The position numbers and the translations under genes were made by a program. Positions 1 through 24,000 of a stretch of 64,000 nucleotides of DNA are shown in pieces. Below the pieces are notes generated by a model. That model had not been told where the DNA came from. It did not search any database and saw nothing but the letters and a program-made list of their open reading frames with translations. Position 1 is the stretch's first letter. Each line of letters begins with the position of its first letter. This DNA comes from Lepidurus packardi. Its lineage: Eukaryota; Arthropoda; Branchiopoda; Notostraca; Triopsidae. The DNA is taken from contig JAKZAN010000007.1 of the NCBI GenBank assembly GCA_023053545.1, positions 9,362,001 to 9,426,000 on the forward strand, written 5' to 3'.

Positions 1-3000
1 ATCGTACAGGAATTGACAGCTAGGAAAATGGCCGTACCCGCTCCGCAATCCACCGAGTGCTACAATAAACCCCAACACAAATAGATTTCAGTCCACAAAA
101 CAATGAAATGGCGGCCAATTTACAATAAAAACTCGACAGTCATAAAGCCCTGACTTTGATTCAGTCTCATTCGACATAACACAACTGATAACTTCAAAAA
201 GACATTACAGAAAGTTGATCCATGCCAAAAGTTCGTCCGCACTTCAAAAACAGAAAGTACATCTCTTACGTACTGTACTCCATATATGTAGTGTACTGGA
301 AATGCGTACCGTACTTCGAGTAAGTACTGTACCATAAGCACGTACCACATTTAGTATACATTGTACTTTGCATATGTACCTTATTGCGAATATGTACCGT
401 ATTTCATGGATGTAATGTACTCCAAGTATACACTGTACTTTAAATATTTACCTTACTGCGAACATGTACCATACTTCGAGTATGTACTGTACCATAAATA
501 CGTACCACTTTTAGGATACATTGTACTTTGCATATGTACCTTATTGTAAATATGTACCGTATTTCAAGGATGTAATGTACTTAAAAGTATACACTGTACT
601 TGAAATATTTACCTAATATTTACTGCGAACATGTACCGTGCTTCGAGTATGTACTGTACCAAAAATACGTACCACATTTAGTATACATTGTACTTTAAAT
701 ACGTACTTTATCGCGAATATTTACCGTATTTCATGTAATGTACTTCAAGTATACACTGTACTTCAAATATTTACCTTACTGCGAACATGTACCGTACGAT
801 AAATATGTCCGGTGTTTCAAGAACGTACCTTACTTCAAATACACTCAGTATTTCAAGCATTACCGTACTTTGAATATATACAACACTTCCAATACGTACC
901 GCACTTCAAATATCTACTATAGTCCAAACATGTACCTTAGTATAGCTAAATACCATATTACGAACATGTACCGAACGATAAATATGTCCCGTATTTCAAG
1001 AACGTACCGTACTTCGAATACGCTCAGTACTTCAAGCATTACCGTACTTCGAATACGTACAACACTTCCAATACGTACCGCACTTCAAATACCTAATATA
1101 GTCCAAACATGTACCTTAGTATAGATAAATACCATATTTCAAGTATGTACCGTACTTCAAGTATGAACTACGTATCGTATCTATCGTACTATGTACCATA
1201 CTTCAAGTACTCAAGTACAAATACGTATCCTACTTCAGACACGCAACGTACTCCAAATATTAACTTACAACAAATACGTACCGTAAATCCACCCATATTT
1301 ACTTTGTAAAAAAACATTAAAATTGCGCACACACATAAAAAATACTCGCCTAGCTCAATAACCTTTAACTTCATTACTATACAATTTCTAGGATTTTTTT
1401 GGAAGTACTGAAGATTTCTTTGATTTATTAGAGAATTTTTACTTTCTTAAGTTCTCTACGACCAGTTCTTAAACATTTCCTAACCCATCGTATACTTAAC
1501 AATGAACTGTTTACTGGCCAATGCATACGCAAAAAAAAAACAAAGAAAAAAAAAATATGTACCTGTACTGCCTCGTGCATATTCAACCGCCGACAGCAGT
1601 TCTCGCGAAGGCAGACCAGGGCCCCACACACCAGACAGAGGCTCGGTTCCTTGGGTACTTCGTTGCAGGTACCGCATGGCCGGTGATGATAGTACTAGGT
1701 CAATACGACAGTCAACAACAGAAAAACTTCTGGACGGCCTTTTAGTACATCGTTAGTCCCGGAGGAAAAATCATGAAGAAAAGGGTACACATTGAAAGTG
1801 TTCCATCATCCCCTCTCCCCCCAAAAAAAACAGGGTACACAATCCATAATCGATTAAAGAAGGTAAAGAAGGTTTTCCCCGCCCCAAAAGAACATCATCC
1901 ATCACCATAAAGATCCGTTTAGGGATGCATGTACCTGGAAGACGACGTCATAGTTCTCGGGCAAGCCTAGGAGTCGGGGTCGGTTCCATGGTCGGTAGCC
2001 GACCATTAGGCTACGGGCGACGCCTCCCGCTCTCCCGGCGACTTCGCAAATTTCTTCGCACCACGTACGGATCACACTCACCGCTTCTATCCCTTGCGCC
2101 CAGCGTAGCCCATGCCACGCTCGCAGATTCTCCCGCGGACCGCTGCCGCTGCCCGTCAACCCCAAGAAGTGGGCCAGGGTGGCGAATTCGCTGTTGAGTC
2201 CCTGTCTCTCGCTGACGGGTAAAGGTACTTTGTGCAAATGATGAACCAAGAGGGCGCTGATCCGTAAGAAAGGGACCATCATGCGCTGCAACTCAAGTTC
2301 GACCCGGACTTCGCTCCAGTCTTCCTCCTCGGGATCCTCCTCCTCTTCATCCAGGAACAACGGGCTGTGTTCCAATAATGAAAGGACCAGGCCCAGGTTC
2401 AAGGGCAGGTCCCACCCTAACAAGTCGGGAACAGGACTCGCGGCCCTTTCGGGTAAGGCTCGACTGCGCCATAACGCGCGTCCCTTCTCCCCCATCTGTA
2501 AACAGAGTTGGCACAACTGCTGGAAGTAGGCCACGTTGTACAGCCCTTGGACCAGACAGAGGACATACGCTAGGAGGGGAAGGGGAACACAGACGATAAA
2601 ACAAAGCACCCTTAAGAGTCGAGTTTGGAGTTTGTAAGAGGGTCAAAGGGGACGCTAAACTTACCTTTGTCGACTTGTAAGGGCAAGACGAGTAGGAACT
2701 GCACCAGCAATGAGCTCACGTCACTGAGGAGCAGCGGTACGTCCTTTTTATGGACGGCCAGCGAGTCGGCTTGCGCGTCGTCGGCGGCCGACTTGATCCC
2801 CGTTACGTGGCTCCAGCGCTCGCTGTAATAGCGCATGGTTGAGTTTTCGCCGTTGCAGCGCGAAGTGAGTAGTTTCGAGTGCATGGCTAGTACGTGTAAA
2901 AGAGGGATCAGACAAGAACGCTTGGGAAGCAAGGAACTAAGACCAGGTAGCGGGGAGGAGCCGGTGCCGCCCGCCGCGTCAAAGACGTTGGTATAGGACG

Positions 3001-6000
3001 TGAGTTGGTCGTCGCGTTGTAGGATCTCGATTTCCAGGTTCGTCCGCGCGATGGAACACACGAAGAGGAACATGGACGAGGCGGACGGGGACTGCGTCAC
3101 TTGACGGTAACGCGGGAAGGTCGCGCTCGTCATGTGCTCCATAACAGAGCCCATGGCTTCAACCAGTAAGGAGGATACTGGTATCGGCGGCTCTTCCAGT
3201 AAGAGTAACTGTAGTTCTTGACTTAGTGTCGTTAAGCTTTTACTGTGGCTCGAGACCATTGCGCCACTTTGACCTACGCCGCAACAGTACAATTTCAGGT
3301 TCATAGTTTCGTTCATGATTAGCTGCGCGATTTACGATCGGTTACGCACTCGGTCAATCCTTTGGCTTTCGATGGAAACCGATCATAAATTCAAGAAATT
3401 CCAGAGATAGAAAATTCCTCGGCTTTCGGGGGATTCTCCCCCCTTGCCAAGGGCAATGGCAGAGTTAGGTTGTTTGTTGAAGCTCAGAGGGAAACAGACA
3501 ATTACAGGAGGAAAGGGAAATCATGTAGGAGTGCAAATAGTGACTTGGGAATGGGATTGGGGTGAAAAAGGGGAAGGGAGGGTAAGAAGGGATACAAAAG
3601 AGCCCAAGGCATAAAAAGACATAAAAGGCCCGAGGCATAGGGTTCGGCTTGACCGTCCGAAGAAGGGGATCCGAAGGGGAGCCTGTGTAAATCATGGCTT
3701 TTCCTCGTGTTGATTTACTTGGCAATACATTAAAGGGTGTTTTTCCCATAACGGAAACGAAAAGACGGAAAAACGAAAAAGGAAAAGGGGGAACAAGAAA
3801 AGGAATTTCATATTCATGACGAATGGTTCAGCGATTCGCTATAGACCCCAAATTATACCGAACTGTCAAACAGATCACGCTTTCTGGCTTACTCCTTACG
3901 CCAACTTCTGACTGCGGGTGAAATATTCCGCATGGCAACGACAGTGAAATCCCCCAAGATTCTTTAACGGATGTTACGACTGTGACTAGGCTCAAATACG
4001 ATGTTGTTTGGGAAACTCAATACTTGAATGATTTGAGTAATTTGTCTGGAACACGGAGCGTTTGATCTTTTATGAGACAGCTGATCTTGAAAGAGCTTAT
4101 GATCTACAAGGAACAACCTGATCGGACTCCACTGATCTTAGTGAGCTAAGGAGCGCCTGAACTATAAGGAGCTGATCTGTAAGGATCTTCGGACCAATAA
4201 GGAACATGTGATTCCATAACGGACAACTGATCTTTAAGGAGCTACTGATCTATAAGGAACAGCTGATCTTTAGGGAAAGTCTGATCTGACTCCACTGATC
4301 TGACTGGACTAAAGAGCGTATGATCTTTAAGGAACGTTTAATCTTTTAGGAGTTCCTGATCTTCAAGGAACACCTGACCGAAGGAGAGTCTTAGCTGTAG
4401 TGAACAAGGCTCCCGTATACCTTAAGGAGTGTCTGATCATCAGGCTCCACTGATCTGATTGGAATAGGGAGCGTCTGATATATTTGTAAAGAACAGCTGA
4501 TCTTTAAGGAGCTTCTAATTTTTAAAGAGCTTCTGATCTATAAGGGAACGGCTAATCTTCAGGAACGTCTGATCTTTAAGGAGCGTCCGATTTATAAGGA
4601 TCTTCTGATTTATAACTAACAACTGATCTTTAAAAAGCGTCTGATTCGACTTCACTGATTTCACTGGATCAAGGGCGTACGACCTACACGGCAACAGCTA
4701 ATTTATATTAGCGTCTGATCTTTAAGGAGCGTCCGATCTATAGGAATCTTCTGATTTATAACTAACAGCTGATCTTTAAGAAGCGACTGATTCGATTTCA
4801 CTGATTCGACTGGATCAAGAGTGTACGACCTATTAGAAACAGGTAATCTATAGGAGAGTCTGATCTTTAAGGAGCGTCCGATCTATAGGGATCTTCTGAT
4901 TTATAACTAACGGCCGATCTTTAAGAAGCGTCTGATTCGACTTCACTGATTTGACTGGATAAAGAGCGTACAACCTATACGGCAACAGCTTATCTATAGG
5001 AGCGTCTGACCTTTAAGGAGCGTCCGATCTATAGGGATCTTCTGATTTATAACTAACAGCTGATCTTTAAGAAGCGACTGATTCGATTTCACTGATTCGA
5101 CTGGATCAAGAGTGTACGACCTATTAGAAACAGCTAATATATAGGAGCGTCTGATCTTTAAGGAGCGTCCGATCTATAGGGATCTTCTGATTTATAACTA
5201 ACAGCTGATCTTTAAGAAGCGTCTGATTCGACTTCACTGATTTGACTGGATAAAGAGCGTACAACCTATACGGCAACATCTTATCTATAGGAGCGTCTGA
5301 CCTTTAAGGAGCGTCCGATCTATAGGAATCTTCTGATTTATAACTAACAGCTGATCTTTAAGAAGCGACTGATTCGATTTCACTGATTCGACTGGATCAA
5401 GAGTGTACGACCTATTAGAAACAGGTAATCTATAGGAGAGTCTGATCTTTAAGGAGCGTCCGATCTATAGGGATCTTCTGATTTATAACTAACGGCCGAT
5501 CTTTAAGAAGCGTCTGATTCGACTTCACTGATTTGACTGGATAAAGAGCGTACAACCTATACGGCAACAGCTTATCTATAGGAGCGTCTGACCTTTAAGG
5601 AGCGCCCGATCTATAGGGATCTTCTGATTTATAACTAACAACTGATCTTTAAGAAGCCACTGATTCGATTTCACTGATTCGACTGGATCAAGAGTGTACG
5701 ACCTATTAGAAACAGGTAATCTATAGGAGAGTCTGATCTTTAAGGAGCGTCCGATCTATAGGGATCTTCTGATTTATAACTAACAGCTGATCTTTAAGAA
5801 GCGACTGATTCGATTTCACTGATTCGACTGGATCAAGAGTGTACGACTTATTAGAAACAGCTAATATATAGGAGAGTCTGATCTTTAAGGAGCGTCCGAT
5901 CTATAGGGATCTTCTGATTTATAGCTAACAGCTGATCTTTAAACGTCTGATTCGACTTCACTGATTTGACTGGATAAAGAGCGTACAACCTATACGGCAA

Positions 6001-9000
6001 CAGCTTATCTATAGGAGCGTCTGATCTTTAAGGAGCGTCCGATCTATAGAGATCTTTTGATTTATAACTAACAGCTGATCTTTAAGAAGCGACTGATTCG
6101 ATTTCACTGATTCGACTGGATCAAGAGTGTACGACCTATTAGAAACAGCTAATATATAGGAGAGTCTGATCTTTAAGGAGCGTCCGATCTATAACGATCT
6201 TCTGGTCTAAAAGGAACAGGTGATCTTTACGGAGCTTCTGATCTATGAGGGCCTGGTCTATAAGGAATAGCTGATCCGTAAGTAGCGTCAGATCTAACTC
6301 TACTGTTGTGACTGGACTAAAGAGCGTCTGATCTATAAGTACCTTCTGATCTATTAAGGATCAGCTGATCTTAAGAAGAGTCTTAGTTTTTCAACAAACT
6401 GAAGGCCAAAGCTTGACTGATGAACAAGGATATGATGGAGACAAAGACTTACCCAGTTCAGGAGCCACCGGCAGCACCGAGTTGGCCAGCTGACGACAAA
6501 GCGGACACGCGTACTCTCCGCGTTCGACCGCCAGGCTCTGCTGTCGTTGCTGTGTCCTGAGTGAGGCCAAGTACGCCTTCTGGCAATCCAAGTGCAAGTA
6601 ATGTCCGCAGGTCTGCAGGTGTACTCCACCTTGGAACCCGGAGTTGATGGACCGTAGCCAAGACGACTCATCAAAGTTCAGCTTGAGGACCTCCATCTTC
6701 CGCTCCCAATCGGAGCCTAGCGACTCCACGTCCATCCCGCGTACCTCCGTAAGCGGTAAAGCCACAGGCGCTCCGAGTCGACGATGCCCCACCGCGGAAG
6801 TCGCTTGGATCAGCACAACCAAACACACCGGTCGGTCAATGGACGACGGAGTGGTCTGGTTGCAAATCACGCAATCATACGTTTCCTGTGTGGGAGCCGT
6901 GGTTTCGGTCGCTTCAGGTTCCGTCGATTCTGTGTCTTCCATGGATTCCGCCGCTTCCCCTTCTTCATTGTTTTTGTGTAAGTAAGATTCAAACGAACAA
7001 CCCTCGTTCCCTTCTTTCTTTGTATTTCCCCTTCCACCCGATTCTGTATCTAGAATCGGCGCTCTCTTACCTTGCATTGCTTGTTTCATGAACTGCTTCT
7101 GACGCGACGCAAACTCCGCCATGAGTTTTTGCTGCCTTTCTTTGGCTTTGCTGCGTTTGTCCTCTCTTTCTTTGGAATCCTTGTGCTTCTTCCACTCCGC
7201 CAGTTCCTCGACTGTCCGCGGCCATAACTCCTGCCTCGTCCTCAGCACACAATCCCGAACGCGCGTATCCATGGCGCATAACTTATCCAGTACTTTCCGC
7301 ACGAAGAACGGCCCGTCTCCAATACGGCTTTCGGCCGTACTCGGAGCAGAACTTCCTTCTCCTGCTCCCACTCCCGCTGTTACTCGCGGCGCTTCGTAAC
7401 TGTCGGCCGTACCCGTCATCTTCGAGTGGAGCTTTAGTAGCAACGAAATGATGCTCTCGTGAACTTCCACATGCTCTGAGGCGGGCAGCGGCAGCGCGTA
7501 CCCACTGTCCGCCCCCAGAGGACTAGAAACTGAATCCGACCGCACCAACGCGTTAGGTAGCGAGAGACCGCTGGGTCCTTCAATGCCCTCGTTCGCTATC
7601 GACGGTCGCGGTACGACTAAGATACCTTGCGCCCCGTTCAAAACTCATTACATACATGATTGCAAAAGAGACAACCGGATGAGCATCCACCCGGAAGTGA
7701 AGAAAGCGTGCGACTTACCTTGGAAACCTGACGGTCCGGCTTCCGCCGTGGTTGACGTTCGTCGAGAGGACTCGGGACGCGAGGACAGGACCATAGCTCC
7801 GACTTGACTCCCCGAGGGGCTGCGCTGAGGGCTTAAAGGAGGGTTCCGGAACGGTGACGGAGGAGGTAAAGGAGAGTGAGCATGTTGGATGTGGAAGGTA
7901 GGAGAGACAACTTCGTTGCCGGCCGTTAGAGCACGGAGTCGGACGGGAGAGACTGTAGGACCGTTTTCTAAAGGTAGATAGTACTGCGCGTCGATTATTT
8001 CCGAAGGCAACTCGGAGACGTCCATCTCACCGTCCGATGAGTCCACGTCGATTTCTCCACCTTTAGGTACGTGTCCCATTAGCTTATTGCCCTAAAACCT
8101 TCTAATCTCTTCTCTCAATCATAACTGGCTCAGTCGTTCAAAGAGCACCTGGACTCACCTTCGGTACTGTTGATGGAGATTGCAGTTTGCGGCACGAGTT
8201 TGACTCGGGAGATAGGAATGCAAACATTCTCGGCCAAAGAATCCGTATCGAACCAATCTTGGAACGCCATGTCCTGGCGTTCCTTGTCATGGTGCTGGAC
8301 TCGATGGTCCATTACACACAGCTCCTAGAGCACGTCCACACGTTCTATTACGACCCAATCTTTCCCAAAGTACCTCCAAACCCTTCTTATCCTCTACTTA
8401 CCTGGCCACTGGTCGGAACCGGCAACGTCTGGAAAGACACCGCCATATCCAACAGGTAGACTGTCAGCGCCAGTACCTGCTCCGGCACGAGGTTCGTGGA
8501 CGAATACAGCGCCTTGTAGAGCAACGCCCAGATCACTGCGTGAGCTGTCCCGCTCTGCAGGATGATCCTAGGGTCAGGGTAGGCGGGATGGACCGGTCCG
8601 GGTAGTCGGAAAGGCGGCCAGAGTGAATTCGGCGCTCCCTCACTTACCTTCCACCTCCCCGTTTGCTGAATACTACACCCGCTCCCCACAAAGCACAATC
8701 CATCAACACTTTTTTACGACACTAGCCTCTCTACCCTCTGACAACCCTAAAGCTTCCCCGGGTACTTACAATTGAGTAAACCGATCCATGGACGTTTGGA
8801 AGTCGCGGCGATGAACGGCACGGAGTAGGACGTACATGGGGTCGTAGAGCTGTTCCCATACTTCAGGTTTAGGGACGTAGTGTCCTTGCTGTAAAGAGCC
8901 GGAAGCTTCTACATTAGGCGCCCTGTAATCCGCCACTTGGGCCAGGACCGCGTCAAAGTCTTTGTTCTGAGGCGCGCCGCACTTTTCTGGCAGCAATTCC

Positions 9001-12000
9001 ATGAGCTGGCTATGCGTACGATCCGACATGCACAGTAATGACACCATCTCCAAGCGCTCTAAATCTCTTTCAGACAACCCTGTGCCAAAACCGAGGGTGA
9101 ACAAAGTAAGATTCACTACAATCTATCCAAACTTTCGAGCTTTTCTCTCCCCCTCTCTATGGCTCCTGAAGAAATAAGAAAAGAACTTCCGCTAGTTACC
9201 GATATTAGTGCGGATGTTGAGGATGGAGGCCATAAACGTCAGCCAGGACTCGAGCATGGCCATTTCGTGTTCGGCTTCCAGGAACGCGTTGGTCGCTTGT
9301 GGGTTTACGGACAGCGTTCCTAGCACATGGAACCGCTCCAACACCGTCATCCAAAACGTGGACGCGGGTAAGTGGGTCGCACATAACTGCAGCAAATACA
9401 AGTCGGCGTCCACCATCGAGTTGCCAAAATGACACTGGATGTACGTCATGGCTTGGCCTTTGATCTGCAGACCGTTCCGAACCCATAGCCCACACAGAAT
9501 CTCATAGAAACTCACCTGCATGCAATGAAAATAATTTCTTTTAAATATTACAAATAACTAAAAACCAATTCTAAAAAATTCTAAAATTCTAAATATTACA
9601 AATAACTAAAAAAAAACTTTCTAAAATATTTAGAATAAAATAGCAAGACGAATTACGTCTTCCTAAACTAACTAACAATTTACAAATAATTAACTAAAAA
9701 ATAATTATAATAGTTAAGCTATTTTAAAAATATATAAAATTGTACAACTGCAGTTAAGAATAATATTACAATTAGCTAATTTAGTCCACAAATAAACTAA
9801 TTCAATTAACTAACTTCAGTTCACTATTTATCTAGTTCAGTTCAGCTCAGTTCAGTTCACTCTGACAAATAACTAACAATTTACAAATAATTAACTAAAA
9901 AATTATTATAATAGTTAAGCTATTTTAAAAAATATATATATAAATGTACAACCGCAGTTAAGAATACTATTAAAATTAGCTAATTTAGTCCACTAATAAA
10001 CTGATTCAATTAACTCATTTCAATTCACTATTTATCTAGTTCAGTTCACTAGTTCAGTTCAGTTCAGTTCAGTTCAGCTCAGTTCAGTTCAGCTCAGTTC
10101 AGTTCAGCTCAGCTCAGTTCAGTTCATTCTGACAAATAACTAACAATTTACAAATAATTAACTAAAAAATAATTATAATAGTTACGCTATTTTAAAAAAA
10201 TAGATAAAAATGCACAACCGCAGTTAAGAATACTATTAAAATTAGCTAATTTAGTCCACTAATAAACTGATTCAATTAACTCATTTCAATTCACTATTTA
10301 TCTAGTTCAGTTCACTAGTTCAGTTCAGTTCAGCTCAGTTCAGCTCAGCTCAGTTCAGTTCAGCTCAGTTCAGTTCACTCTGACAAATAACTAACAATTT
10401 ACAAATAATTAACTAAAAAATAATTATAATAGTTAAGCTATTTTAAAAAATATATATATAAATGTTCAATTACAGTTAAGAATACTATTAAAATTAGCTA
10501 ATTTAATCCACTAATAAACTGATTCAATTAACTAATTTCAGTTCACTATTTATCTAGTTCAGTTCAGCTCAGTTCAGCTCAGTTCAGTTCAGCTCAGTTC
10601 AGTTCACTCTGACAAATAACTAACAATTTACAAATAATTAACTAAAAAATAATTATAATAGTTAAGCTACTTTAAAAAATAGATAAAAATGCACAACCGC
10701 AGTTAAGAATACTATTAAAATTAGCTAATTTAATCCACTAATAAACTGATTCAATTAACTAATTTCAGTTCACTATTTATCTAGTTCAGTTCACAAGTTC
10801 AGTTCAGCTCAGTTCAGTTCAGTTCCGCTCAGTTCAGCTCAGTTTAGTTCAGTTCACTCCGAGAAATCTAGTTCAGTTCACTCTGACAAATAACTAACAA
10901 TTTACAAATAATTAACTAAAAAATAATTATAATAGTTAAGCTACTTTAAAAAAGAGATAAAAATGCACAACCGCAGTTAAGAATACTATTAAAATTAGCT
11001 AATTTAGTCCACTAATAAACTGATTCAATTAACTAATTTCAGTTCACTATCTATCTAGTTCAGTTCAGTTCAGCTCAGTTCAGTTCAGTTCAGTTCAGTT
11101 CAGTTCAGTTCAGCTCAGTTTAGTTCAGTTCACTCCGAGAAATCTAGTTCAGTTCAGCTCAGTTCACTCCGAGAAATGCTTTTTTTCGTTTTTAAGACCC
11201 CAATTATCTTGACTCATAAAAACCGAAATTTTCTTGTATTTTTCGGGATGTTTTTCCGGTTTCACGCGTGTCGAATCCAGGTCAATTGATCTCCGCTATG
11301 TCTAACCACGTTGATTGCGTATTTCTCTTCCATCGGTAAGCTCTTTTTCACTCGTCAGGGTTTGATGAATAAAACACGCTCCAAGGCCTTTTTCCCGGTT
11401 TCGGCCACGCCTTCTCTCCGTTCCCCCTGGACCGTTTCACTTCACTTTGCATTGCAGGTGAAAACTCTCATTCTCTCTCTAGTCCCTTTACTCTTGCCAT
11501 TATAGTAACGTCCTGGCTGTCCAGCCACCTGCTTGTACTCGACACAAAAGTGTTCGGAACGGGAACTGCAAGACTTGTCGAGTACTCCATGTGTGTTAAG
11601 TGTAACGTAATCTTGTTGCTAATGTAAACTTATTTATCTGTTACGTTGTTTAAGTTAAGACCCAAAAAGTGTTCGGTGGACTGGATAGCCTCAACAATAA
11701 AGGTGAGTGAGTGCATCACGTGACCAAAAAGTGGTCAAAAAGTAACGGATAACGGGACTTTGGATGGCACCCTGCCCTCCTCTTCTCCCTAAGGCTTTCT
11801 TAATGACCAAAACAAAGCGCGAATTATAAACTTTCCAACCAAAACCTTCAAGAAATTTCTCGTCAACTAGGGTAGTTAGTTCTTAGTCACAAAAATGCTT
11901 TACATTAGCATTTTTTGTGGAGTCTACTGGCCACTACAACCTGAGATATTAGCATTCCCAAATGTGTATTTTGGAAACTACCGCAATTTTCCTTGATTCG

Positions 12001-15000
12001 CTTCCACTGCGAAGAAATTCTCTAAAATTCCTTAGAATGTCTCTTAATTCTCCTTAATTATTCTCCGCAATTATCTTAAAACAATACGAATCGAAACAAA
12101 CTTACAGTACCGATTCCTAGTTTCCAGAACTCATGGCTACCAAACTTACATTGCTTCCTGAATTTCTGCAGTAATTACTATGAATTGAATTAGTCTTTTG
12201 TTTGCATTTCACTTCACATTCTTCCCATATTTCTATTAATTGACTCAATTTCTGGAGTAGTTGCTTTAGAGCTTTTGTGGCAAAGTTACATTACTTCCTG
12301 AAATTTCTGCAGTAATTACTGTGAATTATATTTCCCTTTCATTTCCAATTTTTACTATGAATTGAATTAATCTTTTTTTGCATTTCACTTCACATTCTTC
12401 CCATATTGCTATTGATTGACTCACAATTTCTGGAATAGTTGCTTTAGAACTTTTGCGGCAAAGTTACATTACTTCCTGAATTTCTGCAGTAATTACTGTG
12501 AATTCAATTAGTCCTTTTTTTGCATTTCACTTCACATTCTTCCCATATTGCTATTGATTGACTCAATTTCTGGAGTAGTTGCTTTAGAGCTTTTGCTGCA
12601 AAGTTACATTACTTAAATTTCTGCAGTAATTACTGATTATGTTTCCCTTTCATTTCAAATTTTTTCATTCAAAGATTCAAATTTGGATATTGCGAAATTA
12701 ATGCAGATAAACTCTGCTTACCGGAAACGCTCAGAGTGACGTCATTGGTTCCGCTTATCGCACCTCGAGTATTACAACCTAATGACCTCTAGTTTTTTTT
12801 TTTATATTTTTTTCTCTGGGCAATACAAGAGAGCCAGACATGCGAAAGAAGAGAAGATGAATCAGGGGACATTCCTCCAATAAGCCAAGTTTCTTTCTTT
12901 CCCTTCTCTGCTTCCGTTGAGCTAGGTCATGATGCCCGCCCGGAAGGTCAGGTAGGGCCAACTAAAAATGGGTTTCAGCCCATGAGTCAGTTCTATCTTT
13001 AACCAGAATGACTCACTACAATATACAGTAAATGCCGCTTACTGTGATCATTGGTTATTAGGATCAGCCGCTTTATGGAATAAATTTTAAAGTGCCAATT
13101 CAAAATGACAAAATTCGTAGCGTTTTCATCGATTACTAGAATCCCACTTTCACATATTAAAATCAATTTAAAAAAGAATCTTCAGATGTACAGTAACGAA
13201 ACAGTAGTGATTGCTACATGGACTTTATATATTGACCAAAGAAATATTGCTTTGACGTCGTTTTGATCAGATCTGCCATTTCCAGCCTACTACTTCCCTT
13301 AAGGGGAAATCCCTTCTTAACTCCGCCAGTCAATTAAATGAGCAGGTTAATCAATTGATAATTATATATCATATAATTAATCAATTATAAAGTTTTATGT
13401 TGAGCGAAAGTTGCTTTGGCTGCAACATACAACTTTATAATATGAATTCAGTCAATCTGGATCGCTTTTTACAGTTTTATTTATTACTTAGCTGCTCAAA
13501 AACCAAAGTTTCCTGCATGTTTTTCATACAACTTTGCTTGGCAATGTGGTAAGTCACACAAATCACAACAATCAAAGGACCCAAATTCAATCTTATTTGA
13601 ATGGCACAAGTCAGACCAAACCACGCCCCCCAGTCAGTGATTTTCTTGATTTTGACTGGTGATTTTTGACTTTGAATGGTAGTGTGAACCACCCTTTAAG
13701 TGACTGGGGAAATTAGAAGGGATATCGTGCTGAGAACCTAGCAAAGCGTAGGAGGAGACAGGCGCTGTTTGTTGTGCTTTAGACTGTGTGGTTCTATAAA
13801 AATGGCGATGAACAAGAAAAGAGTTGATTTAAATGTAAAAAAGAAGTTGCGGTTCATTGAAACTTACGACAAGTTACAGCTAAAAGAATTGCCACAAAGG
13901 GAAACAGTTCAGTTACGAATTACTCGATCATATCTATGAAAATTCAAATCTATGAAATTAGCAGTTCAAAGTTCAATTACGAATTGAATATGATTGAATA
14001 TTGAATTGAATTACATATCTACGAAAATTGCTGAAAAATCCTTACCAAATAAACAGTAGTGGATCTAGAAAAAGATCACGAATTTTGATCTTTGTTTTGT
14101 TTTCAGCTTTGTTTCTTGGGTTTAAACATGCCAGTAACTAATTTTCGTTTACCAGATTTTCCGTTTTAATAGAATCAATATTCACTTGACAAATGTAATC
14201 CCAATAAGCGGCAACTACTTAATTTTTTCTTTTTTTTCCCCTGAAAAATCCTTACCAAATAAACAGTAGTGGATCTAGAAAAAGATCACGAATTAGACGA
14301 TGCTTTGTTTAATTGGTTTAAACATGCCAGTAACTGATTTTCGGTTACCAGATTTTCCGCTTTAATAGAATCAATATTCACTTGACAAACGTGATCACAA
14401 TAAGCGACAACTACTTCAACTACTACTTCAACTTCAACTACAACAACTACTATTTTTTCTTTTTTTTTTCCCCTGAAAAATCCTTACCAAATAAACAGTA
14501 GTGGATCTAGAAAAAGATCACGAATTAGACGATGCTTTGTTTCTTGGGTTTAAACATGCCAGTAACTGATTTGCAGTTACCAGATTTTCCGTTTTAATAG
14601 AATCAATATTCACTTGACAAACGTCATCACAGTAAGCGGCAACTATATTTTTTCTTATTTTTTCCCCCAATTTTGTAGATCCTCCTCTTCCACATATCAA
14701 AAATGCATCTTACAAAAGGGATCGGCTACTATTTAATCGCTCTGGGAGCACTCCACTTTGCTCGGGCCCAAATGGATCCTATAACTGTAGTATCTATTAT
14801 TGGCACCTCTATTGGCCTCATCAAGTACGTCGCCTCTTTATGGAACATGGCTTTCAACGAGAAACAAGACAGCTCCGGATCTAATGGCTTCAGCTTGGAC
14901 AACAACTTCGGTCTGTCGATACCTGGTCCTTTCCCGGACTTTACATTCGAGAACTTCAACCTGAACACGAATTCCCTAAACGGGACGCCAGTGAACCAAA

Positions 15001-18000
15001 CTGAATGGCAAACGCTGCTCCATTTCCTGATGAAGAACGACAAGGCGATCCTAAATCAATTCGCCGCCATGTCAGCCAAGTTAACCGGCATGGATCAGCG
15101 TCTGCAAGTCATCGAGTTGACTTTAGCGCGGCTAACTCGGCAGTTCCCAGCCGCGTTGCGATGGGAACTCGGGTTAGACCGGCTCATGACGCTCATCCGA
15201 CCCGTTCACTCGCTTTACGACACATTCCGGTACTTTCTAGCGTTTCCCCTTAACAAATCCCCGTTTTTCTAAACCTAATACGAGTTCCATCTAATCTATT
15301 AAGGTTGTACCAGGACCACAAAGACAAGGTCGAGCGTTTAACCCTCGAAGATTTCGCAAATTCAGCCGTTGGTCACGGAACGGACTCGCTTAGGTCCATA
15401 CTATGGCAAATCCACGACCATACAGTTGCCGGCGCGCCTCTACCGGCAGATTTGCGCAACTTTCGACAGTTGCGGATCGCCCGGGCGAGTCCGCGTCAAG
15501 CTCGCCTGCTAAATACGGGGATTTTCCAGCACTTCCTCGAGTATCTCAAAGTAAGTACCCTCTTTTCCCTTCCATTACTTCCCGGATTCGAACTGGGGGG
15601 TTTGGGTGGGGGTCAGTTCTCCTGCTGGTATGTTATTTCGATCCCTGAAGGAAGTGCAAGGTCCGATTTCGTAAACAGGAATGTTTAAGAAGGTTTTGAA
15701 ATTGAACAGGTCCACACTACAGGTCAAGGGTCAAGTGGGGATTCAATTTCAGGATACTTTTCCGTACTAGGATGTGCCAACTCGAGTTAAACCAGAGAAA
15801 ACTGAAAATACTTGAGGGGATTTTCGTTTTCAAGTAGTAAGGAAAAGAAAGGAAGCTATGATCCGAGAATTCTTATTACTGGCGTTTTCAACGCAGGACG
15901 TGAGTGGAGAAATAATGATTGATCGGGGTCTTTGCTGGATTCAATTAGCAGGCAGGAATCTACCTGGGCGTAAGAAAAGTGGAAAAGACATGCTCTAGGC
16001 CCAGCAAACCCCTTTTGGCAGGGAAAAGTAGTTTCGCCCCTTCGGAGCTTCAGTAAACAACACTTGGAACTCGCAGTTTACGCTACGCTCTTGCAAGGGT
16101 ACGCAGTTGCTAACACAACAGGATCAGGATCAGGTGAACGCTAACCCAAGTTCTGGAATGCTCTAGCACGTTTTAGTAGTGAAAAAAAAAACAAGAAATC
16201 AAAGCAAACAAACAATTTGGTGAATTGAAATGAAACAGTGAAGTGAATTGAAACTAGTCTCATTATACCCATGTTAACTGATCACATAACGCGAACCCAT
16301 ATTGATCCAGACTGTTTAGTCAAGCAATTAGGCTTACAGTTCGACAAAGGTTAAATGAAATCTGGCGATGTAAGTTGTTCGCAGTGTAAACGTTCCAGTG
16401 CCAACAATGAAAATCTCCCAAGTTTGCGCTGGAATTAGGATTTTTGATCTAGACTGTATTGACAGTCTAGATCGTATTGATCTAGACTGTTTAGTGATTC
16501 AAGCAATTAGGTTAAATTACGGTTAGATTACGTAAAATTACGTAATTAGGTTAAATGACGTAAGATTCTGTAAAATTGGAATGCAAGTTTCTAAATTTTA
16601 AAAACTGAACTTCAAATTCCAAGTTTTGAAAGTCAAATTTAAAGTGCTGTGACGTAGATTCGAACCGGTTCGAAGTCGACAACAGGTTTTCAATCTAAAG
16701 CAACGAACAAAAGCAAATACGAGTGAGGTTTGATTGGGTAAACAAGTCAGGTCAGTGTACCACGTGGTACAATGAAACAACAATGAAACCTTTCGGTGGC
16801 CAACATAAGAGTAGCGCGGCTTTCAATTTCCTTTTAGCCACAAGCTTTGCTTTTCATTGTTGGCTAACCGTGTTAAAACTTTGAAACTTTTTCATTCCAT
16901 GTGTCCATTTCATCGTTACAAGAATCTACAAGAAAAAGTGAAGTGAGTTGAAACTAGTCTCATTATATGTTAACCCATGTTAACTCATCACATAACGCGA
17001 ACCCATATTGATCCAGACTGTTTAGTCAATCAATTAGGCTTACACTTCGACACAGGTTCAATGTAATGTATGTAAGATTTTGTAAAACTTCAAATTCAGA
17101 TTCCTAAATTTGAAAACTGAACTTTTGGAAACTGGAAATTAAATTTGGAAACTGAACTAAATTGGAAACTGAAAACTGAACTGAACTGAACTGAAAGTAA
17201 AATTGAACGTGCTGTGACGTAGATTCGAACCGGTTCAAAGTCGATAACAGGTTTTCAATCTAAAGCAGCGAACAAAAGCAAATAAGAGTGAGGTTTGATT
17301 GGGTAAACAAGTCAGGTCAGTGTACCACGTGGTACAATGAAACAACAATGAAACCTTTCGGTGGCCAACATAAGAGTAGCGCGGTTTTCAGTTTCCTTTT
17401 AGCCACAAGCTTTGCTTTTCATTGTTGGCTAACCGTGTTAAAGCTTTGAAACTTTTTCATTCCATGTTTGCATTCCATCGTTACAAGAATTCCAGCGCAA
17501 ACTTTTGAGATTTTCATTGTTGGCACTGGAACGTTTCCACTGCGAGAAAACTACATCGCCAGATTTCATCGTTACAATAATTCCAGCGCAAACTTTGAGA
17601 TTTTCATTGTTGGCACCGGAACGTTTCCACTGCGAACAACTACATCGCCAGATTTCATTGTTCAAACCTGCCAAAACCCATCTCCTGCATTACACTGCGT
17701 TCCCTACTTGAGAATTAGACTGAGAATCTGTTGGAACATTCTTGCAACTCGAAGCCTAGTTTCACAAGTCGAAACACGTCAAAACAAGTTGGTGTGAGCC
17801 TGGGTATAAAAGCTGGCACCGATTAGGTCCTAATCTCATTGAACGACCAGCTCTGGACTCCTTCACAGGTTCATAAGCCCCTTTACGGGTAGTGACGTCA
17901 TCCTAGTTCTGTATTTATTTGCCTACCAAAAAACTCAGTGATTGAACATGAAGCCCAACATCGTTCTATTAGTTTGTGCCTTGGTCGCTTACGCACAAGG

Positions 18001-21000
18001 CTCCGATTTCCTGACCGCGGTAGTTAACCTCTCGGCCGCCAAACTGCGCGATGAGCTCTTCACAAACTTCATCACCAACAACGAAGACCCCAAATTGCAA
18101 CACCAAGCTTTCGCCGAACCCCTGAACTTGCAATTGGCTGTCCTGTCGACCACCGATTCCTTGCGTAGGGATCTGCAAGCGACTTCCCGTTTGGCCATGC
18201 TCAAGGCACTGGGCGGGGATAAGGAAATCCTGAAGCGCTTTGCGAACTTACGCTCGCGCTTTTCGAGTGTTGAACAACGACTCGATGACCTACGCGTGAA
18301 CCTACTGTCGGTGGGTCAACTACCGGTCAATTCCGCCTGGGCCACCTTATGGGACAAGTTGGAAGCGACCTTGGTTCCCGTGGGGAACTTACATGAGTGG
18401 TTTGAAACGTATCAGCGAACAGCTGGCATGGTGAACGAACGCACCTTGCGTGACTACGCGGACGTCATCCAAACTAACGACGACCGTGAATTGGCGACTG
18501 TACACTTGTTGCAGCAATTACATAACTTGACGTGTCCTAATAATGGGACCACAGAAGGAGCCTTTGACGTTTTAGCCCAAGCTCTCAAGGTGGCGCCACG
18601 TGTCATGTTTCGTGACCACTATTTGCAAACAATTCCAATTCATTTACTTAAACTATCTTTTTTTAGTATTCCATAAACTTGTTGTAAACTAGCACATTAT
18701 TTACAAACAAGTTTCAAAGTATTACTTACTATCTTTACTATCTTTTTTATTAACTATCATTTTACTAATTATCTTTTTTGTAGTATTATATAAACTTGTT
18801 TTAAGTAAACTAGCACATTATTTACAAACAAGTTTCAAAGGTTTTAACACTTGGTTTGGTTCCTAGACCACTATTTGCAAGCAATTCCAATTCATTTACT
18901 TACTATTAACTTTTTTATTAATTTACTTTTTAAATTTACTTTTTTATTAACTATCATTTTACTAACTATTTTTTTAGTATTACATAAACTTGTTTTAAGT
19001 AAACTAGCACATTATTTACAAAAAAGTTTCAAAGGTGTTAACACTTGGTTTGTCATGTTTCATGACCGTTATTTGCCAACAATTCCAATTCATTTACTTA
19101 AACGATCTTTTTTTAGTATTCCATAAGCTTGTTGTAAACTAGCACATTATTTACAAACAAGTTTCAAAGTATTACTTACTATCTTTACTATCTTTTTTAT
19201 TAACAATCATTTTACTAACTATTTTTTTTAGTATTACATAAACTTGTTTTAAGTAAACTAGCACATTATTTACAAAAAAGTTTCAAAGGTTTTAACACTT
19301 GGTTTGGTTCCTAGACCACTATTTGCAAACAATTCCAATTCATTTCCTTACTATTAACTTTTTTATTAATTTACTTTTTACTTTTTCATTAACTACCATT
19401 TTACTATCTTTTTTTAGTATTACATAAACTTGTTTTAAGTAAACTAGCACATTATTTACAAACAAGTTTCAAAGGTTTTAACACTTGGTTTGGTTCCTAG
19501 CCACTATTTGCAAGCAATTCCAATTCATTTACTTACTATTAACTTTTTTATTAATTTAATTTTTAAATTTACTTTTTTATTAACTATCATTTTACTAACT
19601 ATCTTTTTTAGTATTACATAAACTTGTTTTAAGTAAACTAGCACATTATTTACAAACAAGTTTCAAAGGTTTTAACACTTGGTTTGGTTCCTAGACCACT
19701 ATTTGCAAGCAATTCCAATTCATTTCCTTACTATTAACTTTTTTATTAATTTACTTTTTAAATTTACTTTTTTATTAACTATCATTTTACTAACTATTTT
19801 TTTAGTATTACATAAACTTGTTTTAAGTAAACTAGCACATTATTTACAAACAAGTTTCAAAGGTGTTAACACTTGGTTTGTCATGTTTCATGACCACTAT
19901 TTGCAAACAATTCCAATTCATTTACTTAAACTATCTTTTTTTAGTATTCCATAAACTTGTTGTGAACTAGGAAATTATTTAGAAACAAGTTTTTAACACT
20001 TGTTTTTGGTTCCTAGGCGTCGGACGGCTTCCTTTGTTCGTTAACCAAGTCGCCACACCAACTTGTCTATGACTTTTACAGCCTTTTAGCCCTAACGGAC
20101 GCTAAAGGTTACGCCATGATGCAATTCTCGTGGATGCTTCTCCGCCTTTACGAAAAAGGTACCGTTTTTGGTTCAAAAAGCGAGAATAGTAACCAAGGAA
20201 GGAGAGATACTTGGAAGTTTGCGTTTTTCTTTAGGCAATTTCACGATGGAATCGGATATGGCCCGTGCGGATTTCGAGCGCCGCATCCTCGAGAAGGCAG
20301 CCGCGGCGCGCCGCGTCTTGGCCGTTATGCCCAATTGGCTATGGAAATGCGACCCCGGTTCCAGCGATCACCACGAGGGCCAAACTTATTTGCAACTCAC
20401 TGAAGTGCTTCAAGTGAGTTACAAACCATTTTTACCCTCCTAACAACCCTTACAATCCACACCATTCTGCCAGCAACATTTCTTTCTTCTAATTCAAGAA
20501 TAATTTCAATTACACGTGCCAGGACTTTCAACGACTCACTTTGACGTCATTTGGTCATTTCAACGACTCACTTTGACGTCACTTTGATGTAGAACTGAAG
20601 CTGACTGTTTAACTAACTGTTTTTATCTAAAATCTTTCAAAGGAAGGGTTCTCCCTTCTAAATCTTCTGATCCTTCTGATCTTTCACTGTCCCAAGTTAT
20701 TTATGTGATGTTAATGTTGTTCCGGCCCCGTAAATAACCTTTCCGGCCTTGTTTTTTCTCATTTTCTCTCTCGCTCCGTCCTTTCTTTAGGGTTACCTTA
20801 TCAACGAGGTTGACATGAATAACATCAACACGTGCAAGGAGAATTGTGCCTCGTACACAGTAGCGACAGAGCAGAATTGCTTCCAGAACGGTTTTTGTGC
20901 TGAGCAAAAGAAATGCGATGGCGGCCGGCTTTTCAACTGCGGCTTTGTGGAAGCCGATTCGACGGTTTGCTTGTCCTCCTCGCTTACCCGTCGCTACGAC

Positions 21001-24000
21001 TGGGTGGAATACAAGAGCGGGCGATTGCTGGGCCAGCGGAATGATTGCCAGGGCCGCGGCCAGAGCAAAAAAAGCGTCAACAGTTGGTGGAGATGGATGT
21101 TTTGGCATTGTTCGTACTGCATGTGTCTCTGCGACCAGCCCAACATCGATTCAGATCGCTTTATTAGCCTTCAACCCATCACCAGCGACGTCACCCAGAA
21201 CCGCTTAATCACGGGCCTCCGTTTCGTGAAGAAGGGACGCGTCATCTCTTTGCAAATCCAAGATGGCGTCGCGCTGCCACGTGGCGCGGTCAACGCGTCG
21301 AGCGTTGACTGGCGACCGTTGGAATCGATCCGCGTCAAAGACGAGCTAACCGCGAACGGGAATCGCAGCGCGGACTACGCTATGATCACCTGGGAGGAAC
21401 GCGCCATCGACCTGGACGATTTGAGCGCTCCCGAGAATCACGTCATCACCGGCGTCCGATTCCGGAGGTTAGGACCTCACCTGAACCTCGAGATCCAAGC
21501 CACACCCATCAATTTCGTGACGGGAGCCTTGGACTCGCAGCGATCAGAGTGGATGGGCAATGACAACACCCCGGAATCGGATTCCCCGCGCACGAAACTC
21601 ACCCTGACCAACCCGGACGTTCCGACCCGCAGCGCAGTGCCGTCGACGTCGAACTCGAAGCCGGATCAGTACGTGGAATTCCAGGCGTCTTCGCTCGAAA
21701 AAGACGTTTCGCAAACCACGGTACCGTTCTGGGACGCGCAACCGGTGGTACCTGAGCCTGCTACCTGGCTGACAGGGATAGGATTGTTCCATAAGGGTCA
21801 AACAGGCTACGGAGGGTTCCTGAGCCTCAAAGTGGCCACTTTGAACGTTACCAACTACTTAGCGTTACCAAATCTCGGCGGCGAGAACTAATGTTATCTT
21901 TGTCGGTCTTTCCAACACAATCTTCCCAACAAGAGACTGTTTTTAAGCAATTCCCAAGTTTGGGAATTGCGCTGAATGTTCACGTTTGTAATAATATTTG
22001 ATTTCCGGGCGTTTTTTTACGACGGATGCTTCCTAATAAAACCTATGCTTTCACACTTGGGCTACATATCTGAATGTACAGTGCAAGTTCTTCTGTTGCG
22101 AGTAAACGAGCAAGAAGCTTCACTTCTAGCTTCAAGAACAAGAAGCTTCACTTATAGAAAAAGAGTTTCACTTTAGGTTATGTCCTCGTAAAACACAATC
22201 GACTTGGGAGGCATAAAAGCTCAGAAAGTTTTGAGAAAATTATTTTTCTTTTTATAAAGGAGTAGGAGGATTGTTACATTTACTAACCTTACTAGCCACG
22301 CCCTTGGTGTTGATCGAAATTATTCCTTTCTGATGCTAAGAAGACGAAACAGAATCGCTGACGTTTCTGTTATGCAGAAAAGGAAAGCCGTTGTGCTACA
22401 TTGTGATATTCTGGGTTTTGGATTTGAAAAAGAAATGGAGTGGGGTAACGCTGATGGTTTTGGTCGACTTTTTCGCTTTATAAAAGAATTTTACGAGTAC
22501 AATCTCGCTGAGAATTTAGGATACGTTAAGCTATGCAAAAGTTATGGAAAACATGCTTCGGCTTTTCTTAAGTTCTATAAACATTGTTTTATATCATACA
22601 AATTGCAAAGAGTGTGCAAAACGATCCAACTAACATCTGAATTAGCCATAAATGATCAATCTACGAAGACTATCTATTTATTATTATTATAAAATTTCTA
22701 TGAATCTTAAAAGTATCTCGCTGAGAACTTATAACACGTTAAATACGCGAAAGTTTTGGAAAAACTTAGTTAAGAAACTTTATTTCGTTCTCTTTTGGCT
22801 CTTGATCCGGATTTCGGAGCCAAAATTGTCAAAACCGGCTACAACCAGCAGCTGCGGTTGCCATTATTGCGTAGTAAGAGTGCAACGAAGCCTTCCGTTA
22901 GGAAACATTGCTATTTAATTGAGCTGTAAAACTGGTAACTTAACTGGATGTTTAGCTTATTTTCTCGCGTAATAATGACTTCTGTAACTTTTTCTGGATC
23001 AATGAATCTATGAGTTCCGTAATCTTTTTCTAGATCAAAAGGAATGAATGAATGACCTTTTGTTAGGTAGCGTGTGGTTTAGGGCAGTTAGGGAATGCTT
23101 CCCCATTTTTCGAAGGTCAGAAGGAACTAATAATAACACAAACGACCTCGGAAAACTTGACCAGATTTGCATTGCGTCTATCTGATTCTTTGACCTTTAC
23201 GGCCTCGCCTAACCCATAAAACCTGAAAAAAATGCCTTTCCCATTCCGCAAGATTCGTCAGAACTTTCGACAGGCGAAAGAATACATACATATCTAAAAA
23301 CAAAATTTTCTTACCTGAATCCTCAGCGGATGCATCATAATGAGATGAAGCATTTCTTGAGAAGGTAAAAGCTGACTTAACGGGATGCCTTGATTCCTCA
23401 CTGCTTGCCCAGTAAATGTCGCCAAATAGCGATGCAGAGGTAAGTGGAAGGACACTTGGTAAGGATCATTCTGCGCAAAAATAGAATAGAATAAATACAC
23501 GTTCTTAAAAGCGGAGATACGTTCCATTCACTTCATTAGCTTCTTTAAATAAAACTAAATCCAATCGACCTAAAGTTAAGCGTCATTTCGATAACGTCAT
23601 GCTCTACAACTTAATCTAAGCTTAAATTAAAAAATTATTCGCATGATTGCCGTCCTAAACTGGTCGAGAGCAAATAGCAACAATAAAATAAGCCAGTTTT
23701 CCCATTAAATGAACAGATTTAAGATCTAAAGATAATAAACAAGGCTTACTTTTCTCGAAACACTACCTTTGTAATTCCCATTTCACTAATTCCGTCTGCT
23801 AAACAGCGCCAAACTGGACTCTAGCGCTCAAATACGGTAAAAAAAAGTTCGAACGTTTCGCCAGGATTTAGCTATGCGAGGCATTTAACGCCACATAAGA
23901 CCTACATAACGCTCTGCATAGCTTGTATGGCTAACAACAAACCCGAAATTTAGAATTTTTTTTTTACTTAATATTGGCCATTTGATATATAATACGTCCT

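What the first reader, a model, noticed from the sequence alone, without database searches (positions are those of the whole stretch)
14703..20158. Two alternative N-terminal modules may feed one set of DUF4803-like 3' exons
The upstream module (14703-15550) and exon 1 of the complete gene (17948-18589) encode related secreted N-termini with separate signal peptides. Both end after Leu-Lys in phase 0 at a good donor. Only one set of downstream exons exists, and no stop or 3' exons specific to the upstream module were found. Alternative promoters with mutually exclusive 5' modules would give two secreted proteins with a common cysteine-rich C-terminus. The other possibility is a truncated tandem duplicate.
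Basis: partly seen in the sequence, partly recalled or inferred. Interest (0 to 1): 0.75.

Follow-up and report, generated by a model that had tools for sequence, protein, structure and literature searches.

The report
Secreted DUF4803 gene, two alternative beginnings
A single gene for a secreted protein of unknown function appears to carry two rival beginnings that would be joined to one shared remainder, an arrangement known from other gene families and still waiting for RNA proof here.

Summary
The anatomy is real. The upstream module (14703-15229 + 15304-15550, 258 aa, no stop) and exon 1 of the complete gene (17948-18589, 214 aa) are homologous: 29% identity over 106 aa, scoring above 3000 of 3000 shuffles. 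I found no other credible relative of either in the 108.6-Mb genome. Both open with a signal-peptide-like start and end in Leu-Lys, phase 0. DUF4803 (PF16061) was found only in exons 20017-21891, from the sixth residue after the junction.

Exon 1 of the complete gene has its own TATA+Inr. The upstream donor is strong (fifth of 466 GT); of the 17 best acceptors after it only 20016 leads directly into DUF4803, in phase. The locus lies antisense inside a 13.8-kb UBR3-like intron.

Best reading (0.66): a two-module variable-first-exon gene, as in vertebrate UGT1 or beetle receptor genes. Not shown: transcripts, the upstream module's promoter, any second species. A different 3' exon (such as 16022) or a recently dead duplicate remains possible. 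New member of a known kind.

The parts
14703..15229 (+). Upstream module, coding exon 1: ATG and signal-peptide-like start (hydrophobic stretch, then A-R-A)
   Evidence: searches (open frame; coding score 0.43; 1.6% of 955 noncoding ORFs as high), alignment, hydropathy
15230..15303 (+). Short intron of the upstream module (74 nt; the complete gene has one of 76 nt)
   Evidence: GT-AG pair that keeps the frame; protein alignment ungapped across the junction; both sites score low (donor 4.2 bits, acceptor -0.56)
15304..15550 (+). Upstream module, coding exon 2, ending Leu-Lys in phase 0
   Evidence: in-frame score 0.57; 0.2% of 955 null ORFs as high
15551..15556 (+). Strong donor AAA|GTAAGT of the upstream module
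   Evidence: 8.1 bits, rank 5 of 466 GT in 13000-21999; GT at 15606, 15612 and 15628 (6.4-7.8 bits) are out of phase
14664..14678 (+). Acceptor-like site before the upstream ATG (CCCCCAATTTTGTAG), suggesting a 5' UTR intron
   Evidence: 2.25 bits
13693..14645 (+). Dispersed repeat: about 250-bp head (13693-13945), then a tandem part to 14645; copies elsewhere match as far as 14563
   Evidence: 39 scored copies of the head elsewhere at 80-83% (40 of 600 candidates scored, this copy included)
17804..17812 (+). TATA box GTATAAAAG (9/9 to STATAWAWR, consensus recalled), promoter of the complete gene
17836..17840 (+). Initiator-like TCATT, A at 17838, 33 nt from the TATA box; the only TATA(9/9)+TCAKT pair on either strand of the window
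   Evidence: 15 TATA 9/9 sites on both strands, 1 with the initiator
17948..18589 (+). Exon 1 of the complete gene: second N-terminal module with its own signal-peptide-like start (A-Y-A), ending Leu-Lys in phase 0
   Evidence: (score 0.60)
18590..20016 (+). Intron 1 of the complete gene, in large part a tandem array (194-bp unit at 19192-19928) with no match elsewhere in the genome search; several units carry acceptor-like GGTTCCTAG
20017..20158 (+). Shared exon 2, entered in phase 0; DUF4803 begins at its sixth residue
   Evidence: acceptor third best of 227 AG
20235..20413 (+). Shared exon 3
20791..21891 (+). Shared exon 4, cysteine-rich part (CSYCMCLC), [18 protein letters not shown] and stop
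22035..22040 (+). AATAAA after the shared exons, the first AATAAA on the + strand after the upstream module
9516..23314 (-). UBR3-like intron (GTAAGA...TGCAG) that contains the whole DUF4803 locus on its other strand

Best explanation
One gene with two alternative 5' coding modules. Promoter B (TATA+Inr at 17804-17840) starts transcripts whose exon 1 (17948-18589) is joined to shared exons 20017-21891. A promoter upstream of 14.7 kb (not identified) starts transcripts with 14703-15229 and 15304-15550; their strong donor at 15551 passes over exon 1 of the complete gene, which as a first exon needs no acceptor, and joins the acceptor at 20016 in phase 0. Result: two secreted proteins (731 and 687 aa) with different, distantly related N-terminal modules and an identical DUF4803/cysteine-rich C-terminal part, chosen by promoter and so probably by tissue or stage. 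Shown: exons, phase, homology, one set of 3' exons, second promoter motif, coding character. Inferred: the 15550-20017 splice, the upstream promoter, the regulation and the protein roles.
For: One DUF4803 set in 108.6 Mb; the modules' only credible relatives are each other; homology beyond 3000 shuffles; compatible phase and Leu-Lys ends; DUF4803 lies wholly in the shared exons; upstream donor 5th of 466 GT and 20016 acceptor 3rd of 227 AG; the module scores as coding while in-frame read-through after 15550 does not (0.47 against -0.07); own TATA+Inr for the second module. The module is intact, although neutral decay at 0.1 substitutions per site leaves 0.3% (with an assumed indel rate) to 10.6% (without indels) of 1000 simulated copies open, and the repeat beside it is at most 83% identical to its scored copies, so probably not young (its age was not measured).
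Against: No RNA or second species. No promoter found for the upstream module: a TATA-like 13794 lies in the dispersed repeat and lacks an initiator. Three AATAAA (14048, 14258, 14490) sit in that repeat, between any upstream 5' exon and the module. Competing acceptors: 16021 (4.25 bits, above 20016 at 4.07), 18783 (4.14, 6 residues then stop), 17868 in the second module's 5' UTR (4.0, 7 residues then stop), and 18514 inside exon 1 (1.72 bits, 18th), which would also reach DUF4803 with 25 residues of the second module added. The coding score is a soft test: it gives 0.38 to an antisense frame of the module and 0.47 to a 39-codon frame at 15555-15671, just after the donor and out of the module's frame.
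Confidence: 0.66

Rival explanations
1. The upstream module is a separate short gene whose last exon lies in 15551-17947, for example after the acceptor at 16021 (40 residues, stop at 16142), or after 17868 (7 residues, stop). It would make a secreted DUF4803-less protein.
For: Acceptor 16021 is the best of 227 AG by a generic matrix and keeps the frame for 40 residues; 17868 scores 4.0. A 39-codon frame at 15555-15671 scores 0.47, as high as the module, though in another frame.
Against: Coding score of 16022-16141 is 0.04, against 0.47 for the module; no AATAAA in 15551-17947 and one ATTAAA at 17138, though that scarcity is not significant (13% of 300 shuffles); no DUF4803 match and no copy elsewhere found for the region.
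Confidence: 0.15
2. Recently dead truncated tandem duplicate: the module lost its own 3' exons and promoter (perhaps through the repeat insertion) and is decaying.
For: No promoter found; dispersed repeat with three AATAAA just upstream; no own DUF4803 exons.
Against: 258 codons without stop or frameshift at only 29% identity to its sister; in simulation 42% of copies stay open at 0.01 substitutions per site, 7.7% at 0.03 and 0.3% at 0.1 with indels, so death would have to be recent; strong donor kept.
Confidence: 0.13
3. One shared upstream promoter with a common 5' UTR exon that is joined either to the upstream module (acceptor 14678) or to exon 1 of the complete gene (acceptor 17868), so the choice is by splicing, not by promoter.
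For: Acceptor-like sites 14678 (2.25 bits) and 17868 (4.0 bits) precede both modules.
Against: A perfect TATA box and initiator 108-144 bp before the second ATG, the only such pair in the window, argue for a separate start.
Confidence: 0.06

Closest known systems
Vertebrate UGT1 and GCNT2 clusters (variable first exons, constant 3' exons)
   Same: Tandem homologous first modules (UGT1: each a signal peptide + N-terminal domain; GCNT2: each with a distinct promoter), joined to common C-terminal exons (PMC1885805, passages).
   Different: Only two modules here, 29% alike over the aligned part; unrelated protein family; one module split by an intron; no transcript evidence.
Beetle odorant, gustatory and odorant-binding genes with alternative N-terminal exons (Dendroctonus ponderosae DponOr2a/b, DponOr36a/b, DponObp6, DponObp7; Tribolium TcasGr214)
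   Same: Arthropod loci with mutually exclusive N-terminal exons, for DponOr2/36 two-exon A1-A2 modules, on shared C-terminal exons (PMC6720082, passages).
   Different: Receptor or binding proteins; the DponObp alternatives encode the short signal peptide; the DponOr cases are described as 'regarded' and 'seemingly', the DponObp ones as supported by transcripts.
DUF4803 family (PF16061), including parasitoid-wasp venom VID proteins
   Same: Complete gene matches Pfam at 5.2e-98 and carries CxxCxCxC, RRY and a repeated TG-x-R-F motif like those described in PMC8310156 (passages).
   Different: One copy found here; six wasps have 91, 41, 17, 17, 1 and 1 (PMC12822402, passages). 'alternative splic' does not occur in the main text of either paper.

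Membership tests
DUF4803 (PF16061) | Pfam profile match over the gathering score | tested here: met
   327.9 bits against 27, profile 3-255 of 255, residues 220-477
DUF4803 (PF16061) | CxxCxCxC motif, RRY, repeated VI/VTGIK/RF motif (PMC8310156) | tested here: met
   read: [21 protein letters not shown] and VITGVRF (the last two are close variants, not exact)
DUF4803 (PF16061) | upstream module alone belongs to the family | tested here: not met
   no Pfam family up to E 1; it is an N-terminal module only
variable-first-exon gene (UGT1-like) | two or more homologous 5' modules in tandem, each with its own start | tested here: met
variable-first-exon gene (UGT1-like) | one common set of 3' exons | tested here: met
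   one set found in the genome
variable-first-exon gene (UGT1-like) | compatible phase at the junction | tested here: met
   phase 0 at 15550, 18589 and 20017
variable-first-exon gene (UGT1-like) | a promoter before each module | tested here: inconclusive
   second module: TATA+Inr; upstream module: none found
variable-first-exon gene (UGT1-like) | transcripts joining each module to the shared exons | not testable with these tools
   no RNA data held
venom protein | expression in a venom gland | not testable with these tools
   organism unnamed; no RNA

The most novel reading that the evidence does not exclude
A DUF4803 gene, hidden antisense in a UBR3 intron, works as a two-module UGT1-like cassette in which promoter choice swaps the secreted N-terminal module on a constant cysteine-rich domain; the cassette could have arisen at one stroke when a tandem duplicate lost its 3' half and its donor captured the neighbour's exons.
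Probability: 0.58. Interest if true: 0.42.

Novelty: new member of a known kind. Interest (0 to 1): 0.35.

Why it matters
DUF4803 proteins are abundant in some parasitoid venoms, and in one wasp five of them are needed to degrade host imaginal discs (PMC12822402, passages), but the domain's basic role is unknown. One gene with two interchangeable N-terminal modules would show that the family can diversify by exon choice and not only by gene duplication, and would point to the N-terminal module as the part that sets specificity. It would also be a clear two-module case for how a variable-first-exon gene begins.

Tried and rejected
Own DUF4803 exons for the upstream module: none found in the genome. 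In-frame read-through after 15550 as coding: score -0.07, 23% of null ORFs as high. Poly(A)-signal scarcity as proof that upstream transcripts run on: 15551-20016 (+) holds 1 A[AT]TAAA against 7.35 expected (0.7% of 300 shuffles), but the scarcity is significant only in the tandem array; 15551-17947 alone is not (13%) and its other strand is alike (16%), so it is not used. Relatives in viral contigs and genome contigs: 4 and 15 pattern hits, none confirmed. PDB by sequence: none up to E 1. AlphaFold2 of exon 1 of the complete gene, with the upstream exon as second row: mean pLDDT 38.1, no residue at 50 or more, so its all-helix picture is not used; the second job and fold searches were not run. 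Exon 1 of the complete gene also hits C5 (E 0.04, ahead of the upstream module at 0.08) and C131 (E 0.5): the first is an acidic coiled-coil-like frame, the second a 78-aa frame; I judged both unrelated by eye. COX1 search made to guess the organism: 41 matches, mostly with mitochondrial-code stops; no species call. The bacterial promoter scan does not apply here. Three literature searches with 3-5 joined terms on alternative first exons or UBR3 nesting listed 0 papers; a lacewing-venom paper on alternative splicing was seen in passages and not used.
Full report
OBSERVATION. The upstream module is 14703-15229 + 15304-15550 (258 aa, no stop), closing with Leu-Lys at AAA|GTAAGT in phase 0. The complete gene is 17948-18589, 20017-20158, 20235-20413, 20791-21891 (687 aa plus stop), with exon 1 closing in Leu-Lys, phase 0. 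Both starts look like signal peptides by hydropathy and by A-R-A / A-Y-A before the likely cut (judged by eye).

HOMOLOGY. BLASTP gives 29% over 106 aa; a Smith-Waterman score of 113 compares with at most 68 in 3000 shuffles of the upstream module (fitted P 1.4e-9). The alignment passes ungapped over the 74-nt intron of the upstream module, which supports both the intron and the kinship; the two splice sites of that intron score low on their own. In the genome the module matches its own two exons and, third, exon 1 of the complete gene at E 4.4e-6. The reverse search finds itself, then C5 at E 0.04, the module at 0.08 and C131 at 0.5; the C5 and C131 frames do not look related.

ONE SET OF 3' EXONS. 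Pfam finds DUF4803 (PF16061) in the complete protein at 5.2e-98, residues 220-477, that is from the sixth residue of exon 2 on; the upstream module has no Pfam family up to E 1. A genome search with PF16061 up to E 10 gives 3 matches, the three shared exons; the last exon as protein query gives 1 match at E<=0.001. So no second DUF4803 set or relic was found, between the modules or elsewhere. These searches score only their best candidates.

IS THE UPSTREAM MODULE ALIVE? A hexamer model was trained on 21 long ORFs (19,860 nt) and 112 kb of noncoding DNA from the window (without 13500-22500) and 200 kb of the same genome. The joined module scores 0.47 bits per codon (0.94% of 955 noncoding ORFs reach it), exon 1 of the complete gene 0.60, the in-frame read-through after 15550 -0.07. 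An antisense frame of the module scores 0.38, and a 39-codon frame at 15555-15671, out of the module's frame, 0.47, so this is supportive, not decisive. Simulated neutral decay leaves 42% of copies open at 0.01 substitutions per site, 7.7% at 0.03, 1.1% at 0.05, 0.3% at 0.1 (10.6% at 0.1 if indels are ignored; 1000 copies each). A dispersed repeat with its tandem part lies at 13693-14645, ending 57 bp before the module's ATG (copies elsewhere match to 14563); its 39 other scored copies are 80-83% identical (40 of 600 candidates scored). It is therefore unlikely to be a fresh insertion, and the module has stayed open beside it. That last step is inference: the age of this copy was not measured.

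SPLICING LOGIC. The upstream donor ranks 5th of 466 GT in 13000-21999; that of exon 1 of the complete gene ranks 21st. GT at 15606, 15612 and 15628 score 6.4-7.8 bits but are out of phase. Of 227 AG between 15600 and 20030, the acceptor at 20016 ranks third (4.07 bits), after 16021 (4.25; 40 residues then stop) and 18783 (4.14; 6 then stop) and before 17868 (4.0; 7 then stop). Of the 17 best only 20016 leads directly into DUF4803. The 18th, 18514 (1.72 bits), would also, through the donor at 18590, adding 25 residues of the second module; eight further AG in exon 1 would keep the frame but are not among the 25 best. The 17948 exon is preceded by TATA box GTATAAAAG (17804) and initiator TCATT (A at 17838), the only such pair on either strand of the window. 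A first exon needs no acceptor and is passed over by upstream transcripts unless a site such as 17868 is used, so the chimera is what the anatomy predicts. If a tandem gene lost everything from its second intron to the neighbour's promoter, the same chimera would follow at once. Hence 'alternative modules' and 'truncated tandem duplicate' are two descriptions, of the working and of the origin, and can both be true.

WHAT IS NOT SHOWN. No promoter was found for the upstream module. It has an acceptor-like CCCCCAATTTTGTAG ending at 14678, pointing to a 5' UTR exon beyond the repeat; a TATA-like site at 13794 lies inside the repeat and lacks an initiator. Three AATAAA lie in the repeat. A small 3' exon after 16021 cannot be excluded; its 40 residues score 0.04. 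Poly(A)-signal scarcity was examined and dropped as evidence. No RNA, no second genome.

SURROUNDINGS. The locus lies on the + strand inside a minus-strand UBR3-like gene. Pfam gives zf-UBR (2.8e-19) at 28018-28206, UBR1-like_wing (1.2e-16) at 8769-9122 and PRT6_C at 2615-3331 (2.2e-7) and 1905-2642 (2.1e-15). In all, 4 of the 13 minus-strand stretches scanned in the two calls match a UBR-type family above its cut-off; the others have no match above cut-off, among them the two exons that flank the intron. The exon ending ...MHPLRIQ at 23315 (GTAAGA) and the exon beginning VSFYE at 9515 (TGCAG) join in frame; the intron of 13,799 nt holds the whole DUF4803 locus. That the gene is UBR3 rather than another UBR, and that these two exons are neighbours, is recalled.

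KNOWN KINDS. [quoted passage not shown] DUF4803: arthropod-only family, found in venoms of braconids (PMC8310156, passages); five venom members of Asobara japonica are needed for degrading host imaginal discs, and two of six wasps have a single copy (PMC12822402, passages). A search for DUF4803 lists 10 papers; in the two of them that I searched for it, 'alternative splic' does not occur in the main text. The other eight were not searched for this. The gene here was found in one copy and nothing ties it to venom.

VERDICT. Real anatomy, sensible reading, known kind, unproven splice. Interest 0.35.

Noticed in passing
9516-23314 (-): The DUF4803 locus is nested antisense in a 13.8-kb intron of a UBR3-like gene whose recognised exons run from about 28.5 kb down to 1.9 kb.
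   Followed up: partly
18590-20016: Intron 1 of the complete gene is in large part a tandem array (194-bp unit) with no match elsewhere in the genome search; several units repeat an acceptor-like GGTTCCTAG like that of the true exon 2 acceptor, so decoy acceptors multiply before it.
   Followed up: partly
13693-14645: Dispersed repeat with a 250-bp head (39 other scored copies at 80-83%, 600 candidates) and a tandem tail; three AATAAA and a TATA-like site inside.
   Followed up: partly
16355-17660: Inverted repeat arms (82 nt, 91%) and internal direct repeats (299 nt, 96%) between the modules; the genome search found no copies elsewhere.
   Followed up: partly
15555-15671 (+): A 39-codon stop-free frame just after the upstream module's donor, in another frame, scores as coding as the module; unexplained.
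   Followed up: no
L015 and other places listed: Many mitochondrial-type COX1 matches (with TGA inside) in large contigs, apparently nuclear copies; three COX1 frames without stops on contigs C52, C214 and C43 may be bacterial contamination.
   Followed up: no
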